This document shows, piece after piece, positions 37,692 through 64,000 of a stretch of DNA of 64,000 bases. Location: the IMG/VR virus record IMGVR_UViG_3300037319_000172, positions 1-64,000 of that record, one strand, 5' to 3'. This DNA is from a virus. The notes under the pieces were generated by a model that had not been told where the DNA came from, made no database searches, and saw only the letters and a program-made list of their open reading frames with translations. Numbering within the stretch: position 1 is the first letter of the stretch; the number at the start of each line of letters is the position of its first letter. The position numbers and the translations under genes were made by a program.

Positions 37692-37963
37692 TATCTAAAG
37701 TTTTTATAGTCTTTTTTAGTTGTATATGATTTAAATCCCTTAAGGTATGTTACCGCATCTACTAGATCTGATAATACCTTCTGAATTAAAATTACAAAAT
37801 CATTCATTCTAGCATTTCGCATAATATAAGGAGATATTGACTTCTTTAGAATGTTGTTAGTATAATCGTTACCTAAGTTTTTTCGATTATCCATTACACC
37901 ACGCCTAACTCTGTAATTTCTCTTTTGTCTACTTTTAAATAGATTTTGTATTAAAGATGCCAT
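37691..37963 (-). CDS. Small basic protein between gp6 and the large wedge gene (90 aa)
   Basis: A 90-residue, strongly basic protein (SRQKRNYRVRRGVMDNRKN) with a helical C-terminal half (VILIQKVLSDLVDAVTYLKG). Its start overlaps the gp6 stop by one base and its stop overlaps the next start. It is therefore firmly part of the baseplate operon. No family is recognised; an assembly factor or small wedge subunit is possible. Confidence 0.6.
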   Translation of the reverse strand: MASLIQNLFKSRQKRNYRVRRGVMDNRKNLGNDYTNNILKKSISPYIMRNARMNDFVILIQKVLSDLVDAVTYLKGFKSYTTKKDYKNFR

Positions 37964-39783
37964 TATAATGCTTTTCTATTTTTAGCTTGTATTTTAGAAA
38001 ATATAGTATTTGGAACTGCATGTTCGTCGAAATAAATCGAAAGTGCTCCTTGTTCTCCTAGCTTTGCATCATCTGGAATTTCAACTCCATCTCTATCTAA
38101 CCAACCTCCTCTGAATAAAGCAACTTCTTCTTTACCTAAAAGTATATCACCAAATGAGTCTAAATTAATAACATCTTCAGGTAATGCGGCATTAGGTTCA
38201 AAGCTTATTTTTCTTTCAGTTACTGTTCTTTTAAAGAAAACATATTTTTGTTTACCATTTCCTATTGTTTCCAATATAGGGGTAGATGGAGTTACTATAA
38301 CTTTCTCTAGGATGTAATACCCTAACCTACGTGCATCTTCCTCTACTTTAGATATAAATCTTACATTTACCGAATCAATCCCCTCAACACTCTCTAATAG
38401 TGCTATAATGTCAGATTTTGGTAAACGATCTCTTCTTGTTATGTTGATTAAATATTCAGATATCTTAGATCTTATTTCAGAATAAAGAGCAGGTTTGTTA
38501 TATCCTTCAAAATATCTAACTTTAACATCCATACTAAAATACTGAATAGAAGGTTCTACTATTTTAACCTCAGTAGTCACCATTTGTTGTCCACTGTTTT
38601 CTAATAATTCTAAAAATCCATTCTTTTCTTCACTTGAGAAAAAGAATTCATCTAAACCTAAATTAAAATAATCTTTATTCTTAGTTAATTTTCTAGCCGT
38701 GTCTGGCAACATAAATAAATAAATAACATTGTCATCATCAATATATCCATCATCTGTAGTATTATATGCATCTAAATAAGAAAACATTCCGTATCTTGAT
38801 AAAAAATACTCAAAAGAATTAGGGTTAGCTAAAACAAATGAATGAGATTGCAGTGGAGCTATTAATTTAGTTAAGTTGATATCTTCTGGGTTTGCTCCCA
38901 TTTTAGGAGCAATTGTAAATGAAGATTCTAATAACTCATTTAAGTCATATTCTTCTCCCATTGAATCAAAACCTTCAGTTATAAACTTAAAGGTAAGATC
39001 CTTAGACCCTGTTAAATTACCTAAAGTACCTGAAGTTGTCATGTACTCTATTGTAATTGAACTACCAGCCGATGGAACAGATCCGAAAGAACCATTTCCA
39101 AAGTATATGTCTAAACCTCCGTTTATTCCTGTTTTAACTAAATATCCTTTAGTCTCAACTTTCATATCGTATAATGAATCATACTTAGACCATAATGTAC
39201 TATTTACGCTTACTCTAACTGAGTGATGATCTGTGTTTTCTTTTGTTAGTATATTAAAAGACTGTAAATTTTCACCAGTTCCTGTTACCGTTTGTGATTC
39301 GAATTTTCCTTGAATAACTGGTATGCTTATGTAACTTGCATTGTTCTTTTCAATTCTAAAAATATCGTTGTTTGTTTTTAAAATATATTCTAAACCGTTA
39401 GAAGTACATTTAATAATAGAATTTTTAGATATATTTAAAGCGTCTCCTGCAATATCACTAGAAGCTGTTGTGTTTAATCTTATTCTAATTTCACCATACG
39501 CACTAGATCCTCTAAATGCATCATGACCTGCAAGTCTAGCAAGACCATATACTGATTCAGGGTTTTGCGCTGTTAATATATTCTGCTCAACCGTGGCATC
39601 TTCAACATAGAAGAATATAAGCTTAGTGATTTCAGTAAGAACGTCTAGTATTTGTGAAAAGGGAGATGCTGTTGTAAATAATTCACCTGTTCTTCCATAT
39701 AAACGAGAAATATATGACCTCGTGTCCGTGATCATTTCGTCTGCTCTTATCCTAGAGGCTTTTAAAAATTTAAATTCAGCCAT
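37963..39783 (-). CDS. Baseplate wedge protein gp6 (baseplate J-like)
   Basis: A 606-residue protein near the size of T4 gp6 (660). The N-terminal SPFSQILDVLTEITKLIFFY and TAQNPESVYGLARLAGHDA are typical of the baseplate J/gp6 family, as is the later FEGYNKPALYSEIRSKISEYL and VEGIDSVNVRFIS region. In T4, gp6 dimers form the iris-like ring that clamps the wedges. It follows gp25, which contacts gp6 in the wedge core. No truncation is seen. Confidence 0.85.
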   Translation of the reverse strand: MAEFKFLKASRIRADEMITDTRSYISRLYGRTGELFTTASPFSQILDVLTEITKLIFFYVEDATVEQNILTAQNPESVYGLARLAGHDAFRGSSAYGEIRIRLNTTASSDIAGDALNISKNSIIKCTSNGLEYILKTNNDIFRIEKNNASYISIPVIQGKFESQTVTGTGENLQSFNILTKENTDHHSVRVSVNSTLWSKYDSLYDMKVETKGYLVKTGINGGLDIYFGNGSFGSVPSAGSSITIEYMTTSGTLGNLTGSKDLTFKFITEGFDSMGEEYDLNELLESSFTIAPKMGANPEDINLTKLIAPLQSHSFVLANPNSFEYFLSRYGMFSYLDAYNTTDDGYIDDDNVIYLFMLPDTARKLTKNKDYFNLGLDEFFFSSEEKNGFLELLENSGQQMVTTEVKIVEPSIQYFSMDVKVRYFEGYNKPALYSEIRSKISEYLINITRRDRLPKSDIIALLESVEGIDSVNVRFISKVEEDARRLGYYILEKVIVTPSTPILETIGNGKQKYVFFKRTVTERKISFEPNAALPEDVINLDSFGDILLGKEEVALFRGGWLDRDGVEIPDDAKLGEQGALSIYFDEHAVPNTIFSKIQAKNRKAL

Positions 39784-39800
39784 TATTTATATTTATAATT

Positions 39801-40154
39801 TTATATATAGACTCCTAATTGGAATCTAGAATCTACTGTAATATCTAAAAACATTACATGTCTGTCCACATCTTCGACTACTTCGATGCTAACGTCTACT
39901 TTGTATTTTGTTGCAAGAGGAACATATGCTATCAATTGATTAACTACTACGTTTTTTAATTGAAAATCATTATACCTTAATTCATATACATGGTCTTCTA
40001 GGTTTGCTCCAAAATCAGGTTGCCCTAGAACTTCGCCCTTTCGGGTAAAAAGCATTGTTTCAATCTGCGTTAATAACATAGACAGTTCAGTGTCCTGCTG
40101 CATCACATCAGATTTGTAGTTAGGTTCTCCTATATTTTTTACGTAAAATTCCAT
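39801..40154 (-). CDS. Baseplate wedge protein gp25
   Basis: A 117-residue protein with the GPW/gp25 family pattern: an N-terminal helix (DTELSMLLTQIETMLFTRKG), GQPDFGANLEDHVYEL, and the C-terminal beta strands ending in SRFQLGVYI. T4 gp25 is 132 residues and forms the wedge core with gp6 and gp53, contacting the sheath. The frame is intact and lies directly before gp6 in transcription order. Confidence 0.85.
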   Translation of the reverse strand: MEFYVKNIGEPNYKSDVMQQDTELSMLLTQIETMLFTRKGEVLGQPDFGANLEDHVYELRYNDFQLKNVVVNQLIAYVPLATKYKVDVSIEVVEDVDRHVMFLDITVDSRFQLGVYI

Positions 40155-40170
40155 ATGTTTATATATACGT

Positions 40171-41010
40171 TTAAGAATGCATCATCCAATCCGTTCCTTC
40201 ATCGTTCTTTATTTCTTCAATTACTGCTTCTAATTCTCCTTCTCCTAATCCTTGTATAAGATCTGCATTTACTTGAATATTACCAGGTAATGTAAATCCG
40301 AATATTCCTAGTTTTTGACCTAAAGATATTTTAATCTTTGCAGAACAATACCTAAAAAATGCTTCATCACTAAATAGTGCACATTCTGGAATTGTTTCAT
40401 AAACTTCCAATATAATATCTTTCATAGGTGTTTCTCCTGTGAATTTTAATTCATGAGTTAGTTGATTGTAATTAAAACTTATCGGGTTATCTATAATTTG
40501 TCTGGCAAGATCGAAAAAACTTTCATTAATAACATAAGACTGTAAGTTTTCAGCAGCTCCTGCAATTCCAGCACCGCCGCTATAAGTTCCTTGCATCATC
40601 ATTCGCTCTACACTAAAATCACCCTTTTGAAAATCAACATCATTAGTTCCTCCAAAACGAGATCCTGCAGTAAAACAACCGTACACTGAATATATCTCAT
40701 TACCTCCCGTTGTTGTGTCAGGTCCCGGTAACGTAAACGATCTTGTCGCTTTGAATTTTTCAGAATCAAATAAAGAATGGGGTAATACCACAAAACTTTC
40801 TTTAACAGAATATTCATAGTTTTTATAAAACCATTTCTTTGCTCTTTTAATTATATTCTGAACTTCCTTCTTAGGCAGATTCATTGGAATCATACAAGAA
40901 CCTGTAACGTCTTCCGCTAATTCTAAAACAAATTCATTAAAACAATTTACGCCTGGTTCTACATCGTCTAACCATGATTCTTTACCTACAAAAATATTAC
41001 TCATTTTCAA
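40171..41010 (-). CDS. Virion structural protein, possible neck or baseplate component (279 aa)
   Basis: A soluble 279-residue protein. The helical N-terminal half contains NIIKRAKKWFYKNYEYSVKE. A Gly-rich middle follows (GGTNDV; GTYSGGAGIAGAAENLQSY). The conserved-looking end (KLGIFGFTLPGNIQVNADL, GEGELEAVIEEIK) is of a kind I associate with structural proteins next to gp25 in marine T4-like phages. It is co-directional with gp25 (17 bases). A neck (gp13/gp14-like) or wedge role fits, but I cannot choose between them. Confidence 0.5.
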   Translation of the reverse strand: MKMSNIFVGKESWLDDVEPGVNCFNEFVLELAEDVTGSCMIPMNLPKKEVQNIIKRAKKWFYKNYEYSVKESFVVLPHSLFDSEKFKATRSFTLPGPDTTTGGNEIYSVYGCFTAGSRFGGTNDVDFQKGDFSVERMMMQGTYSGGAGIAGAAENLQSYVINESFFDLARQIIDNPISFNYNQLTHELKFTGETPMKDIILEVYETIPECALFSDEAFFRYCSAKIKISLGQKLGIFGFTLPGNIQVNADLIQGLGEGELEAVIEEIKNDEGTDWMMHS

Positions 41011-41019
41011 TTATTATTT

Positions 41020-42312
41020 TTAAACTTCAGTATACAGGATCTTTTCAGTTCCATCAAACTTCGCTAGTTTTTTATCGTATCTTCCTTCTCTAAATATTCC
41101 GCCTTCCATGGAACCTTTTAGTATTCCATCACCATATATATAACCATCTTTTATTTTGACACTTTGGTGAACGTAGCTACTTTTTATCTTTGAAGAAACT
41201 ATTTCGCAATTATCGTAAAAGTTACAGTTATTTAAATCGGAACCATCAATCTTACATCTAAATAAATCACAGTGATATAATTCTCCTCGAATTTGACATC
41301 CTATAAAATCATATCTTTCTAATTCCACACAGTATTGAAGTTCACCTTCACTTACTTGTACTTTACCAGTATCTGTATCATAGTTTATATGTCCTTTCAC
41401 TAAAGTACCGTGAGTAAATAATCTCATTACTCTTTCTTTAATGTTATCCCAGTGCAGATCTAGTATTTGAGCGTAGTTCTGTAAGTCAACTGTGAATTTT
41501 ACATTCTTCCATTCCTTTTCAATAAATCTCCAATCTTTCCTTGCATCTATAATCCTCTGGTTCTCAGAAAGTATTCTCTTTAACTCTAAAGCATTAAGTG
41601 GCGTAAAATGTTTATCCATAGTAGAATTCCAAAGTTGTATTAGGAATTGATCTAGCATGTGTAGTATTGTTGAAGTTTTCTTTTCCCAATCTGCTCCTCC
41701 GATATATCTGAACTCTAAATAGTTCTTATGTCTTTTGTCGAAGTTGATTCCGTAGTATTTTGAATCAGGGTAAATAAAGTTTTGTGAGTGTATATGTTCT
41801 CCGTTGAAGAAGCTCATACCTGTTTTCGGTAAAACAAACTTTACAGATTTAGCGTATGCTGAATCTTTTCTTTCTGGAAAGAATTTAAATACTTGATCTT
41901 CTTTAAAGTCAAGTATGAATTTAAGAACATTCATTTTAGAAATCCTGTACTTGTCTTCTATTTTGTTTTTGTCAAACGATAAATTTAAGTGAATTGACGT
42001 TCTGTCATTAGTATATCCGTTTTCTTTAATCCAACGACATACATTGATAATCATTAATCTTGCACCATAATATTCTTGTGGTCCGGTAACAAGCTCCATT
42101 AGCTTTTCACCACCGCTCATATCTGGTTCTATTTTGAATTCGTCAGCAGTAACTTCAAAGTCACTGTGTGCTTTTTTCTCTACTCTAATCTTTTTATTTA
42201 ATAAACCTGCAAGTTCTTTTGCAGTTTCATCAATCGTTAGATTTGAATAGAACTCGAATTCTACGCCGACAAGGCAGTTTTTTAGTACTTCTGAATCGTT
42301 AAATGTGTTCAT
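41020..42312 (-). CDS. Amidoligase-like enzyme fused to pentapeptide repeats (430 aa)
   Basis: Residues 14-22 (LVGVEFEFY) with later EPDMSGGEKLMELVTGP, SIHLNLSFD and YLEFRYIGG match the layout of the phage amidoligase family (glutamine-synthetase-like COOH-NH2 ligase fold). In that fold the acidic residues hold metal-ATP. From about residue 340, repeats of five (YDFIG CQIRG, LYHCD LFRCK IDGSD LNNC) form a pentapeptide-type beta-helix. Such enzymes join amino and carboxyl groups on peptides; the substrate here is unknown. It lies between small genes and structural genes, so it might modify a virion protein or a host cell-wall peptide. The family call is from motif memory. Confidence 0.5.
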   Translation of the reverse strand: MNTFNDSEVLKNCLVGVEFEFYSNLTIDETAKELAGLLNKKIRVEKKAHSDFEVTADEFKIEPDMSGGEKLMELVTGPQEYYGARLMIINVCRWIKENGYTNDRTSIHLNLSFDKNKIEDKYRISKMNVLKFILDFKEDQVFKFFPERKDSAYAKSVKFVLPKTGMSFFNGEHIHSQNFIYPDSKYYGINFDKRHKNYLEFRYIGGADWEKKTSTILHMLDQFLIQLWNSTMDKHFTPLNALELKRILSENQRIIDARKDWRFIEKEWKNVKFTVDLQNYAQILDLHWDNIKERVMRLFTHGTLVKGHINYDTDTGKVQVSEGELQYCVELERYDFIGCQIRGELYHCDLFRCKIDGSDLNNCNFYDNCEIVSSKIKSSYVHQSVKIKDGYIYGDGILKGSMEGGIFREGRYDKKLAKFDGTEKILYTEV

Positions 42313-43348: not shown

Positions 43349-44617
43349 TTATATCTTTAAGAAAATCTTTCTAGTTTCTGAATCAATTCTAGTAACTTGT
43401 ACTGTCATTTTATCTCCAGGCTTAATAGTATCTAAATCTACAATATCTTCAATTTCTGAGATATGTAATAGTCCAGCTACTCCTTTTTCAATATCTACAA
43501 AGATTCCATAATCTTTAACTGCTTTTACAGTTCCTACAACCTCACTAGGTGTTTTAATTCTGTCTGTGATTCCTTCCCATAGATCAACTACTGGTTTTGA
43601 ATCGATTTGAGTTAAAATAATCTTCTCATTAGATACAACTTCTTTAATCTTAAAGACAACTTCATCTCCAGGTTGGATTTCTCTACCTTTATGTGCCTTT
43701 AATAATTCAGGAGTTAAATCATTAACGTGAATCATTCCTGTTAAACATTCATCAAACTCTACAAATACTCCGTATTTAGCAGAACCTGTAACTTTACCGG
43801 TAATTTCTTGATTTAAGTTTTCTTGTAATGCTTCTATCTTAGAAGGTATCATCGCTTTTAAGTATTCTCTGTGAGATACTACAATAGTTCCTCTCTTTTC
43901 AGAAAAACTAACAGGTACTACATACATATTAGTTCCTACGATAGATTCGAAGTCTGCTAATTTATTAATTCCAGCCAAAGAGCCTGGCATAAAGCAATCA
44001 ATCCCTTGAATTGTTACAATGTAACCTCCTCCTGGAATCATTTGAGAAACTAATCCCATATAACCAGTTGAAGCCTCTTCGATAGATTCCATGATCTCAG
44101 CAACTACTGCTGATTTAACTCCAGCACTGATAGATCCTAAAACATATCCTTTAGATCCTCCCATTTGAAGAACCTGAATTTTAACATCAGCTCCAAATAC
44201 AAACAATCCTCTAACGCTTATTTCTTCTTTCAATACATTAACATATACACTTTCGCGATATCCAATATCTACTGAAACCCATTCTGCATTAATACTATCG
44301 ATTTTACCCGAGTATATTTTACCAACTTCAACTTGCATTTGCATTGGTCTAGATTCTTCATATCCATTTAATAGGTTTAAGAAATCCTGAGCATATGGTT
44401 CATGTGAATACACATTATGTTGTCCTGAATTTTTAAGACTTTTATTTATCTTTCTAGATCTAGAAGGACATGATGCTTGGTGAGCATCCCAGTCAAATTT
44501 TGAAGGTTCGACGTTTGCATTTTCTAAATATGCTAATTTGTCTGATTTTTTTACTGTTTGAGCTTCTGGTTTATCTGAAACCATACGTACTCTTGATACT
44601 TTAACGTCTTTTGACAT
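43349..44617 (-). CDS. Ribosomal protein S1 homologue with four S1 domains
   Basis: A 422-residue protein with four OB-fold S1 repeats at about 96-165, 182-250, 266-338 and 356-422. Diagnostic segments are GIDCFMPGSLAG, TGSAKYGVFVEF, LTGMIHVNDL, DYGIFVDIEKGVAGLLHISEI (in part). They align in order with domains 1-4 of cellular S1; domains 5-6 are missing. Residues 73-86 (EPYAQDFLNLLNGY) resemble the S2-docking helix of E. coli S1, and KFDWDAHQ (40-47) resembles the NWDAY/FDWD start of Bacteroidota S1. S1 delivers mRNA to the 30S subunit. Likely role: competing with or replacing host S1 to favour phage messages. It is flanked by its own promoter-like element and terminator. Confidence 0.88.
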   Translation of the reverse strand: MSKDVKVSRVRMVSDKPEAQTVKKSDKLAYLENANVEPSKFDWDAHQASCPSRSRKINKSLKNSGQHNVYSHEPYAQDFLNLLNGYEESRPMQMQVEVGKIYSGKIDSINAEWVSVDIGYRESVYVNVLKEEISVRGLFVFGADVKIQVLQMGGSKGYVLGSISAGVKSAVVAEIMESIEEASTGYMGLVSQMIPGGGYIVTIQGIDCFMPGSLAGINKLADFESIVGTNMYVVPVSFSEKRGTIVVSHREYLKAMIPSKIEALQENLNQEITGKVTGSAKYGVFVEFDECLTGMIHVNDLTPELLKAHKGREIQPGDEVVFKIKEVVSNEKIILTQIDSKPVVDLWEGITDRIKTPSEVVGTVKAVKDYGIFVDIEKGVAGLLHISEIEDIVDLDTIKPGDKMTVQVTRIDSETRKIFLKI

Positions 44618-44658
44618 TGTTTTTTTAATTTAAGTAGTTAATAATTAATAATTGTTTT

Positions 44659-44671: not shown

Positions 44672-46459
44672 TTAAAATACAACCGGAATAAATCCTATCA
44701 TAGGAATTGGACCGACTGACGTTGATAATTGTCCTACATATATGAATTTAAAAGATAACAAATGTTTTGCACATACTGCTGCAATAGCGGCTGCAACTAA
44801 TTTAGTAGCAACTGGAATTCCAGGTGGTTTGTCAAATGATTTACCTGTGTTAAATGCTCTTCTTAATCCTGATGCAAGTTTTGATGTACTTCCGTAATAA
44901 ACTGGTATAAATGATCCTGGGCTTGGTATATTACAAGGCGTGACTGCAGGTGAAGCTTTAAATGGTTGAACTGCTGTTGATAACCAATATGCCTTTATCG
45001 CTTTTGCAATTGTGTCATATCCATCAGCTGAACCTTCTACGTCTTCTTCAGAATTTTCTTGATCTAGTTCATTAGCCCACTGTCGTTGTAGTTCTCTGAA
45101 TCTATCTCTTTCTTCTGCGTATTGTTCTTCTAGTTTTTTATTTATATTATTTCTAACACTATTATCTCTGGTTGCCTTTCCTTTATCATGTTTATGTATG
45201 TACACGAACTTACATATAAATTTATTAGTAAACCATTCAGGTAATTCAGTAGGCCTATCTTCATGTCCTTCTTGAAAAACATACTGATTTATAGTAGATT
45301 CTTTTTTATAAACTGGAATTACTTCAGTTAATTTATATCTATTGTCAACATTAGGATCCTCAGTTTCAGGAGTGTAATAGAATCCACTTCTATTTTCCTT
45401 TCTGTACTCTATCCTATTTTTATTGGCAATCTCTTTTATTTTATTGTATACCTTTCTACCAATAGTTTTGTCGTCTCCTTTTTTAATAGTATTAATCCAC
45501 TTATTAAATTCTGGAGTTCCGTTATTTTGAGCCATTACTCTGTCAACTAAAGAATCTATAATTTCTTCATCTGATAGTTCTGGTATTGGCATATGAGTTT
45601 CTGGTATTAAAGCCTCCAACTCTGTATTATTTTGAGGTTCTTCGTTAGAATCAATTACGTCGATATCTGTTATGTTTCCATCTAATCCTATTTTTATAGA
45701 TTTAGATTTATTAATTTCTTTTATAACAACTTCTCCTGTTGAATCTAAGATACTTACAAACTTATAAGTATATTTACCAGGATACGCGGGGATTTCAATA
45801 TCTAACATGCCCTCTGTTGTTGCTGATGTCAATACTTGTTCCTCTCCGTTGATCTGGTATTTTATTTTATATGATTGATTTTTATCGAAGTCTTTTATAG
45901 AAAATCTAGCGATGTTTGTTTTAATAGGTGCCGCTGAGTTTTCTTTATCTAAATTTCCTTGGTCTTTTATTAATTGAAAGTCTACGTTTGCAAAGAAATC
46001 TAATTCTTTATGTAATGGACATGTTGTTTCGAAAAATGGATAGAATTTGAATTTATCTAATCTATCTTTATTTTCAATTGCCCACTTCTCAAGTTCACAG
46101 TATGGATTGTAACTAAGATCTGGTTCTGGTAATGCATCAAATAAATCGGCATACTTTTCCGCAAGTAGCCTGTTTTTCATTTCTTCTGAGCTTTTAATCT
46201 CATTAAATATTTCCTGAAATCCTTTTTTAAAACCTTCTTCTAATACAGGCTTTTGACCTGATTCGTGTAAGTTACCAAAAGGTGTTTGTGATGTTTTAAC
46301 TGCGTCGAAATATTCTTGAGCTAATATCTTACTAAAATCCGTTAAATAGTTTTCATCGGGATTCTTACTCACGTCTGTATTTGGAGAAGATCCATCAATG
46401 TTTCCACTACTCATTTGAGTGGATATGTTTTTAATAAATATAGGCCAATTTGCCGGCAT
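44672..46459 (-). CDS. Baseplate-region structural protein (595 aa)
   Basis: Residues 1-150 are helical and charged. Residues 190-270 look like an Ig-type beta domain (KIKYQINGEEQVLTSATT, YPGKYTYKFVSILDS). A charged helix at about 440-480 (KLEEQYAEERDRFRELQRQW) follows. The last 110 residues are hydrophobic and Gly/Pro-rich (PSPGSFIPVYYGS, VATKLVAAAIAAVCAKHLL, GPIPMIGFIPVVF). The gene sits directly after the gp5-like spike gene, so a hub or spike-tip role is plausible. No family is recognised. Confidence 0.5.
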   Translation of the reverse strand: MPANWPIFIKNISTQMSSGNIDGSSPNTDVSKNPDENYLTDFSKILAQEYFDAVKTSQTPFGNLHESGQKPVLEEGFKKGFQEIFNEIKSSEEMKNRLLAEKYADLFDALPEPDLSYNPYCELEKWAIENKDRLDKFKFYPFFETTCPLHKELDFFANVDFQLIKDQGNLDKENSAAPIKTNIARFSIKDFDKNQSYKIKYQINGEEQVLTSATTEGMLDIEIPAYPGKYTYKFVSILDSTGEVVIKEINKSKSIKIGLDGNITDIDVIDSNEEPQNNTELEALIPETHMPIPELSDEEIIDSLVDRVMAQNNGTPEFNKWINTIKKGDDKTIGRKVYNKIKEIANKNRIEYRKENRSGFYYTPETEDPNVDNRYKLTEVIPVYKKESTINQYVFQEGHEDRPTELPEWFTNKFICKFVYIHKHDKGKATRDNSVRNNINKKLEEQYAEERDRFRELQRQWANELDQENSEEDVEGSADGYDTIAKAIKAYWLSTAVQPFKASPAVTPCNIPSPGSFIPVYYGSTSKLASGLRRAFNTGKSFDKPPGIPVATKLVAAAIAAVCAKHLLSFKFIYVGQLSTSVGPIPMIGFIPVVF

Positions 46460-46491: not shown

Positions 46492-47211
46492 TTATTTTCC
46501 AGTCTGTTGGTAATTAACATGTTCTGACTTTAAAGTTGCTATCGCTGAAACTGTAGGTGGCGTTGGAGGACCTGAAGGTCCTGTCCCTGTTGGATGAAAG
46601 TGTTTTTGATAATCATCTAGTAGATTATTTAACCATCCTTCTAATGAAACTCCTCTAACAGCTGGTTCAGATTCATCTTCATCTCCTTCTCCAGTATTAC
46701 TTAAGAATATGTTTCCTGAATCTAAAAATATCTTTTCAGTTGTTGAAATTTTAATAATGCCAGCTTCATCAATTTGTATCAAAGGTCTTTCTTTAGCACC
46801 ACTTCCTCTTGTTATTACCAAACCATCTTCGGGAGAATGATATATCCTTACATTCCTGACGGCGTCATATACTAATGAAACTACATCATGAGCTGCCTCT
46901 GACGGATCTAATATGTCTTCTTTTAATTCTTTATTTTGGTTTATCTGAAACCAATATTCAGGGTGGTATATGTTACCATTATCAAATCTTACAGCGACAA
47001 TATCACCAATACGAGGTACCATTTGTGAACCTACTGCGTCTCTATTCATTGCAGTCGCCCATGGAATAGATTCAGTTTCTAATAAGTCAAACTTACCATA
47101 CACTTTTACCCTGCATCTGCTTAAGTTTGAAGGATCTACATTATCAACCACTTCTCCTAACCAATGAGTTTCTCTAATATTGTCTTTTTCAAGTTCTTTA
47201 TCTGTTGCCAT
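46492..47211 (-). CDS. Baseplate spike/hub OB-fold protein (gp5-like)
   Basis: Residues 15-95 (HWLGEVVDNVDPSNLSRCRV, ESIPWATAMNRDAVGSQMVP, IGDIVAVRFDNG, PEYWF) fit the gp5/gpV/VgrG OB-fold that sits on the gp27-type hub. After residue 110 comes a short beta segment. The C-terminus is Pro/Gly-rich (TGTGPSGPPTPP), lacking the lysozyme domain and long beta-helix of T4 gp5. At 239 residues it is much shorter than T4 gp5 (575). Its neighbours are hub genes. Confidence 0.75.
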   Translation of the reverse strand: MATDKELEKDNIRETHWLGEVVDNVDPSNLSRCRVKVYGKFDLLETESIPWATAMNRDAVGSQMVPRIGDIVAVRFDNGNIYHPEYWFQINQNKELKEDILDPSEAAHDVVSLVYDAVRNVRIYHSPEDGLVITRGSGAKERPLIQIDEAGIIKISTTEKIFLDSGNIFLSNTGEGDEDESEPAVRGVSLEGWLNNLLDDYQKHFHPTGTGPSGPPTPPTVSAIATLKSEHVNYQQTGK

Positions 47212-63312: not shown

Positions 63313-63501
63313 TTATTCCTGGTTATTAAATTTGTTTTCAACGTACTTTGCTTTTTGCATTTTAGTACGCTTCTCGACTGAAGGTTTCGTATAATCTTTT
63401 CCTTCTCTAAGGGCTTTAGTTTGCCCTGTTCTGTTTACTTTATATTTGAATGACTTTAAAGCCTTTTCAATGTTTCCTTTTTCTACTTTTATTATTAACA
63501 T
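63313..63501 (-). CDS. rpsU: Ribosomal protein bS21 homologue
   Basis: A 62-residue basic protein with the bS21 layout: MLIIKVEKGNIEKALKSFKY, then TGQTKALREGKDYTKPSVEK, then RTKMQKAKYVENKF. FTKPSV-type and KAxYV segments resemble Bacteroidota bS21, including a tyrosine at residue 53, near the position reported to help hold the anti-Shine-Dalgarno tail of 16S rRNA. Its ATG lies within the last codons of the upstream gene (TTAGAATGTTAA), so translation is coupled. No extended Shine-Dalgarno sequence, known from host rpsU genes, is present upstream. Confidence 0.85.
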   Translation of the reverse strand: MLIIKVEKGNIEKALKSFKYKVNRTGQTKALREGKDYTKPSVEKRTKMQKAKYVENKFNNQE

Positions 63502-63749
63502 TCTAGTTTGTCAATGATTTTTTTAATATTAGAACATTTCTCATATTCCTCGCATCCTTTAAAAAAGTTTAATATGTTAGTTAACGCTTCAACCTTCTCT
63601 AAAGGATCTGTGTTACTTTTAATAGCTCGATCTTCGTCATTAATAACTGCATTGTAAATCATGTTCATCATTGTTTCTTTGGAACCTTCCTGCAGATTTT
63701 CAATTCTGTTTGAATCATTACCATCGTATGTGTCATCTAGCTCATGCAT
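63495..63749 (-). CDS. Small acidic protein with EYEKC helix motif (84 aa)
   Basis: Residues 63-83 (FKGCEEYEKCSNIKKIIDKL) repeat the UVR-like hairpin of the 85-codon gene on the other side of bS21. The rest is acidic and helical. The stop overlaps the bS21 start by 7 bases, and the start overlaps the DnaJ-like stop by 8, so all three are translated in series. It may pair functionally with bS21 or the chaperone-like protein; this is inferred from coupling only. Confidence 0.55.
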   Translation of the reverse strand: MHELDDTYDGNDSNRIENLQEGSKETMMNMIYNAVINDEDRAIKSNTDPLEKVEALTNILNFFKGCEEYEKCSNIKKIIDKLEC

Positions 63750-64000
63750 TGTCTAACTCTTTAATTTTTTTAATGTGTTCTAATTGTTTTTCGTTTAATG
63801 TAATATTTGATGTTCTTAATTTAACCATCAAATTACCGTATTGGTTGGTATTATATATCGGAAATCCCATACCAACAATTCTTAAAATTTTACCATCAAA
63901 TGAGTTCTTAGGTACCTTTATCTTTACGCTATTAACTTTAGTTGTAACTGTAAAGTCTCCTCCTAATAACATATCATAGAACGGCATATTATAATCTAAC
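63742..64000 (-). CDS. DnaJ-like C-terminal substrate-binding domain, 5' end beyond window
   Basis: The visible protein has LGGDFTVTTKVNSVKIKVPK, DGKILRIVGMGFPIYNTNQY, GNLMVKLRTSNITLNEKQLE. This is the typical DnaJ C-terminal pattern: beta-rich, then GKxLRxxGxGxP, then GxLxVxxxxxxxxLxxxQ. An ATG at 63985-63987 could start an 81-residue protein. The frame is open upstream to the window edge (LDYN before the Met), and LDYNMPFYDMLLGG reads like the interior of the domain, so the gene probably continues and may hold a J-domain. A phage co-chaperone recruiting host DnaK is likely. Confidence 0.65.
   Translation of the reverse strand, partial: LDYNMPFYDMLLGGDFTVTTKVNSVKIKVPKNSFDGKILRIVGMGFPIYNTNQYGNLMVKLRTSNITLNEKQLEHIKKIKELDNA

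What the first reader, a model, noticed from the sequence alone, without database searches (positions are those of the whole stretch)
43349..44617. Phage-encoded ribosomal protein S1 retaining S2-docking-like and Bacteroidota-type N-terminus
The protein has four S1 repeats that correspond in order to domains 1-4 of cellular S1. It also has a segment (YAQDFLNLLNGYEE) resembling the helix by which S1 docks on S2, and FDWD as in Bacteroidota S1. It therefore looks like a trimmed host-derived S1 that can still reach the ribosome, not a generic RNA-binding protein. Loss of domains 5-6 may change mRNA preference. Full S1 homologues in phages are rare as far as I know.
Basis: partly seen in the sequence, partly recalled or inferred. 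Interest (0 to 1): 0.9.

Follow-up and report, generated by a model that had tools for sequence, protein, structure and literature searches.

The report
Phage ribosomal protein S1-like mRNA loader
A large lineage of phages that appears to infect Bacteroidia bacteria carries its own shortened copy of ribosomal protein S1, usually together with its own ribosomal protein S21, and probably uses them to steer host ribosomes to phage messages.

Summary
The minus-strand ORF 43349-44617 (422 aa) aligns in order with domains 1-4 of bacterial bS1. The best structural match is bS1 on the E. coli 30S mRNA-delivery complex. Its N-terminus (FDWD, then YSxE and a helix) matches a leader found in nearly all Bacteroidia S1 sampled and absent from the Pseudomonadota, other-Bacteroidota and other S1 sampled. 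"Trimmed host S1" is only partly right: phage S1s form one deep clade (100/100) that cannot be placed inside any host group, so recent capture is not supported. The family is not rare: 62 IMG/VR loci were fetched directly, and S1 is present upstream of the same tail gene in 72 of 72 testable contigs. New here: the window also encodes bS21 (63313-63501), and 21 of 25 IMG/VR contigs of this lineage carry bS21 beside bS1. Genes lack Shine-Dalgarno sites (5 of 205 have one). Best reading: a bS1-like protein that docks on the Bacteroidia 30S platform with phage bS21 and favours phage mRNAs. Ribosome binding is inferred, not shown. Huge-phage S1 was reported in 2020 (PMC7162821).

The parts
43349..44617 (-). 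bS1-like protein, 422 aa, four OB/S1 domains
44486..44497 (-). FDWD motif (residues 41-44) of the Bacteroidia-type S1 leader
44351..44395 (-). conserved YAQ..(F/L) segment and predicted helix 76-89 just before domain 1, candidate 30S docking helix
   Evidence: PMC10123108 for the E. coli counterpart
44123..44329 (-). OB domain 1, with D117 and R121 at the places of E. coli D39 and K43
43868..44071 (-). OB domain 2 with the GIxCFMPGS signature; the most conserved domain of the family (76% mean identity)
43598..43816 (-). OB domain 3, RNA-binding residues F285 and H297 invariant in 20 of 20
43352..43552 (-). OB domain 4, F373 and H385 invariant in 20 of 20; the protein ends here (no domains 5-6)
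44618..44640 (-). A-rich leader without Shine-Dalgarno in front of the S1 start codon
63313..63501 (-). phage bS21, 62 aa, closest among solved structures to F. johnsoniae bS21 and one other, with the Tyr at the place of F. johnsoniae Tyr54
46492..47211 (-). baseplate hub/spike protein (Phage_base_V), fixed neighbour
44672..46459 (-). fast-evolving 595 aa protein of unknown function, next to S1 in most relatives
41020..42312 (-). Amidoligase_2 enzyme, fixed neighbour that is not a virion-type gene
40171..41010 (-). head-tail adaptor-like protein; anchor used to test that S1 is always present
39801..40154 (-). gp25-like baseplate wedge protein
37963..39783 (-). baseplate wedge protein

Best explanation
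It is a phage bS1-like translation factor. The protein is made with tail genes, probably late. Its Bacteroidia-type leader and domain 1 dock it on the host 30S platform, in the bS1/uS2 region. Domains 2-4 hold single-stranded, A-rich, Shine-Dalgarno-free leaders of phage mRNAs and feed them to the start site. The same phage supplies bS21, the neighbouring exchangeable platform protein, so the two would together re-specify which mRNAs the ribosome accepts. Shown: the domain order, leader homology, bS1+bS21 co-occurrence, absence of SD, purifying selection and the fixed operon position; the fold is predicted. Inferred: ribosome binding, replacement of host bS1, timing and mRNA preference.
For: Collinear bS1 matches. 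Best structural match is bS1 in the 30S mRNA-delivery complex (9gut_B 4.4e-26). Leader homologous to that of Bacteroidia S1: window scores 12.3 bits with 0 of 4290 shuffles as high, hhalign probability 95 and E 2.5e-8 with FDW on FDW. An [F/I/V]xW leader is in nearly all of 30 Bacteroidia S1 (23 strict FxW) and absent in Pseudomonadota and in other-Bacteroidota S1. uS2-contact positions and RNA-binding Phe/His kept. bS21 in the same genome and in 21 of 25 IMG/VR contigs tested. 5 of 205 genes have SD; A peaks at -13 (0.67 against 0.34 background). PMC6847099 places bS1 domain 4 near mRNA nt -12 to -15 and finds that A at -12 and -13 promotes initiation in F. johnsoniae. E. coli S1 without domains 5-6 is viable (PMC3858243). 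Phage bS21 is expressed late with structural genes (PMC9723584). In Lak phages the S1 with the same leader lies by Thg1, DnaB helicase and RNA ligase genes, not tail genes.
Against: No ribosome binding has been shown. The aromatic at the E. coli F5 place is Asp in 5 of 20 rows. The E. coli-type docking motif alone does not score above shuffles. All scores are far below the curated rpS1 cut-offs (137.7 against 577 bits for TIGR00717). The position in a baseplate operon would also fit a virion protein. Lak phage S1 lacks domain 4.
Confidence: 0.6

Rival explanations
1. Off-ribosome RNA chaperone: the protein binds phage mRNAs (protection, unfolding, coupling to transcription) without joining the 30S.
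For: S1 domains bind RNA widely; domains 2-4 are conserved better than domain 1 (0.60-0.76 against 0.42); Lak homologues lie near RNA-processing genes.
Against: The Bacteroidia S1 leader, which has no known need for RNA binding as such, is kept across very distant members including Lak phages; bS21 co-occurs.
Confidence: 0.2
2. Virion-associated protein: packaged with the tail or baseplate and perhaps injected, to act on ribosomes at once or to serve assembly.
For: In 72 of 72 contigs with enough upstream DNA, S1 lies upstream of the adaptor gene on the same strand, within a baseplate operon; the 462 kb phage LR756500 has the same order.
Against: The operon also holds an amidoligase enzyme; Lak phage S1 with the same leader lies among nucleic-acid genes; four bS1-type OB domains have no evident use in a baseplate.
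Confidence: 0.1
3. Host shut-off factor: it takes the bS1 place on the 30S and blocks host initiation instead of serving phage mRNAs.
For: Same docking evidence; it lacks domains 5-6; a phage bS21 put on E. coli ribosomes cut translation to about 5% (PMC6375957).
Against: RNA-binding residues of domains 3 and 4 are invariant, which a pure blocker would not need; phage genes are SD-less like those of the likely hosts, so a general block would hurt the phage too.
Confidence: 0.08

Closest known systems
Bacterial ribosomal protein bS1 (rpsA; F. johnsoniae bS1, PDB 9zcd_A; E. coli bS1)
   Same: Domains 1-4 in order, domain-2 GIxxF(L/M)PGS, RNA-binding Phe/His of domains 3 and 4, Bacteroidia FDW leader
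   Different: No domains 5-6; about 25% identity; a longer stretch with an invariant Cys-Pro between FDW and the helix; own deep phage clade; below curated rpS1 cut-offs
S1-domain proteins of huge phages (Al-Shayeb et al. 2020, PMC7162821)
   Same: LR756500 and other huge phages carry homologues, and that paper already linked S1 with absent SD sequences
   Different: That paper called true rpS1 hard to confirm and described no leader, fixed tail-operon position or systematic bS1+bS21 pairing in the passages read
Phage-encoded bS21 (PMC9723584, PMC6375957)
   Same: Exchangeable 30S platform protein, aquatic Bacteroidetes phages, associated with structural genes
   Different: bS1 is the mRNA-binding neighbour of bS21; Chen et al. 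report no other ribosomal proteins in their phages, whereas here both are present
bS1 of Microcystis jumbo phage PhiMa05 (PMC13157829)
   Same: A jumbo phage carrying bS1 with other ribosomal proteins
   Different: Derived from Vampirovibrionia hosts and with large-subunit proteins; here the host signature is Bacteroidia and the partner is bS21

Membership tests
bS1 (30S ribosomal protein S1) | tandem S1/OB domains in the order 1-2-3-4 | tested here: met
bS1 (30S ribosomal protein S1) | score above the curated rpS1 equivalog cut-offs | tested here: not met
   137.7 of 577 bits (TIGR00717), 153.9 of 524 (NF004952). It is therefore filed as bS1-like, not as bS1
bS1 (30S ribosomal protein S1) | six domains, as in full-length Bacteroidia and E. 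coli S1 | tested here: not met
   ORF ends after domain 4
bS1 (30S ribosomal protein S1) | N-terminal docking helix and domain-1 contacts to uS2 | tested here: inconclusive
   helix predicted and contact positions kept, but the E. coli-type motif does not beat shuffles and no complex was modelled
bS1 of Bacteroidia | FDW leader before the helix | tested here: met
bS1 of Bacteroidia | phylogenetic position of domains 1-4 inside Bacteroidia | tested here: inconclusive
   separate phage clade 100/100; phage+Bacteroidia not rejected (AU p 0.113), nor phage+Pseudomonadota (p 0.202)
bS1 (30S ribosomal protein S1) | association with the 30S subunit | not testable with these tools
   needs pelleting or cryo-EM
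phage bS21 | Ribosomal_S21 domain above cut-off in a phage genome | tested here: met
   43.1 bits against 27; for nearest structures

The most novel reading that the evidence does not exclude
A widespread phage lineage replaces two adjacent, exchangeable proteins of the host 30S mRNA platform (bS1 and bS21) with its own pair, giving a phage-specified ribosome for SD-less initiation in Bacteroidia. The leader peptide FDW...YSxE would be an unrecognised 30S-docking module shared by host and phage.
Probability: 0.4. Interest if true: 0.8.

Novelty: new variant of a known kind. Interest (0 to 1): 0.6.

Why it matters
How Bacteroidia choose start sites without Shine-Dalgarno pairing is open; bS1 has been proposed to read the A-rich leader, and bS21 helps to hide the anti-SD (PMC6847099, PMC9976891). 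A phage family that keeps its own copy of just these two proteins points to the same surface from an independent direction, and the natural 4-domain (and in Lak phages 3-domain) forms are minimal tools for testing it. It also singles out the FDW leader of Bacteroidia S1, conserved across hugely divergent phage proteins, as a likely contact site that can be tested.

Tried and rejected
Recent host capture: rejected as the simple reading, because all phage S1s form one clade on a very long branch. E. coli-type docking helix as independent proof: the profile did not exceed shuffles; Bacteroidia host S1 also fail that profile, so the test does not discriminate. IF3 as a third partner: absent from the IMG/VR contigs searched, present in three larger phages. 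tRNAs: none in the window. A search for a paper on PDB entry 9zcd gave nothing.

Full report
OBSERVATION. The ORF is real and at the stated place. It is under purifying selection (dN 0.078, dS 0.886 against L003, residues 40-422). Pfam sees two S1 repeats, but rpS1 models and bS1 structures align along domains 1-4, the AlphaFold2 model has four OB folds and Foldseek ranks E. coli bS1 in the 30S mRNA-delivery complex first. The overall model confidence is moderate (pTM 0.46, as expected for flexibly linked domains), so the structural match supports fold and order, not arrangement.

FAMILY. 62 relatives were fetched from IMG/VR at 47-83% identity, nearly all as a 396-437 aa four-domain protein. 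More distant homologues lie in phages of 462-735 kb and in Prevotella Lak phages. Lak S1 keeps the leader (FDW...VYSHESYAQDLYDAY) but lacks domain 4. In the IMG/VR lineage the gene order is fixed: hub protein, variable protein, S1, amidoligase, adaptor, gp25-like, wedge. A separate scan with the adaptor-like neighbour found 502 relatives; of the best 80, 72 had enough upstream DNA and all 72 carried S1 there on the same strand. Many of these contigs are near-duplicates of each other or of the first set (44 distinct S1 sequences).

N-TERMINUS. In a draw of Bacteroidia genomes, 23 of 30 S1s have a strict FxW before the helix, and 6 of the other 7 have [IV][DN]W or FVW; the last has a truncated start. 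The 30 are the best-scoring ones of 60 drawn. The motif is absent from the Pseudomonadota, other-Bacteroidota, acidobacterial and fibrobacterial S1s sampled; the single pattern hit outside Bacteroidia (L127) lies upstream of an E. coli-type start and looks like chance. Phage and Bacteroidia leaders align with FDW on FDW and YSxE near YSxE (hhalign 95%, E 2.5e-8). Part of that score comes from the start of domain 1. Nine phage rows including the window beat all shuffles; the most divergent rows do not. Weeksellaceae-type hosts share wording such as LxNQNVAPExFDWD with phage L064. The E. coli helix FAQLF resembles YAQDF, and the uS2-contact positions are kept, but a profile of the E. coli-type helix gives no signal on its own.

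PHYLOGENY. On domains 1-4 without the leader, phage S1s are one clade (100/100) joined to cells by a very long branch; the place of that branch is not resolved (AU p 0.113 with Bacteroidia, 0.202 with Pseudomonadota). Thus an old capture, or fast evolution, with a Bacteroidia-type leader kept or regained.

PARTNER AND HOST SIGNALS. The window encodes bS21 at 63313-63501, nearest in PDB to F. johnsoniae bS21 and one other entry, with a Tyr aligned to Tyr54. That this Tyr takes part in hiding the anti-SD is recalled knowledge of the F. johnsoniae ribosome work, not tested here. bS21 is present in 6 of 9 and 15 of 16 IMG/VR contigs of the lineage, and in three of the five larger phages tested. 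D'Urso et al. describe bS21 as a clamp that ties bS1 to the 30S (PMC10123108). Only 5 of 205 genes have SD-like sites, and A is enriched at -13 and -11, comparable to the A-rich -14 to -11 region of F. johnsoniae (PMC6847099). The host is therefore most likely a Bacteroidia member; no CRISPR or isolate evidence was available for this lineage.

MECHANISM AND RIVALS. The best-supported reading is a ribosome-docked mRNA loader acting with phage bS21 late in infection. A virion role cannot be excluded from the operon position, but the operon also holds an enzyme, and Lak homologues sit among Thg1, DnaB and RNA ligase genes. Off-ribosome RNA binding and host shut-off are weaker.

NOVELTY. Huge-phage S1 with absent SD was reported by Al-Shayeb et al. 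(PMC7162821), and other phage bS1 since (PMC13157829). The leader, the core status in a lineage with fixed tail-operon position, and the regular bS1+bS21 pairing were not found in the literature held here; subscription papers and supplements could not be read.

Noticed in passing
window 63313-63501 (-): Phage bS21 gene, close to genes for a PhoH protein and a short DnaJ C-terminal domain protein (63742-63987).
   Followed up: partly
window 41020-42312 (-): Amidoligase_2 (glutamine-synthetase fold) enzyme fixed in the tail operon in the relatives; its substrate is unknown.
   Followed up: no
window 44672-46459 (-): 595 aa protein next to S1 with no family match, evolving much faster (31-48% identity) than its neighbours.
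   Followed up: no
L193:4284-6260 (-), about 88 kb of the same contig: ClpA/ClpC-like AAA unfoldase, next to a thymidylate synthase; McNutt et al. (PMC9976891) speculated that phages may encode a protease against host bS21, so a phage Clp unfoldase is worth a look.
   Followed up: partly
L066 9950-11059, 11851-12705: In Lak phage B5 a Thg1-like tRNA guanylyltransferase gene lies near the three-domain S1 gene.
   Followed up: partly
L012 2008-3273: The S1 gene of this contig is split into two frames (246 and 167 aa); frameshift or assembly error.
   Followed up: no
L192 5869-14781 (-): Several large tail-fibre-like proteins with collagen-like GxY repeats (e.g. GPQGEPG, GDQGFQG).
   Followed up: no
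W01-W03 (LR756500, LR756501, LR756504): These larger phages encode IF3 as well as the S1 homologue; two of them (W02, W03) also encode bS21.
   Followed up: partly
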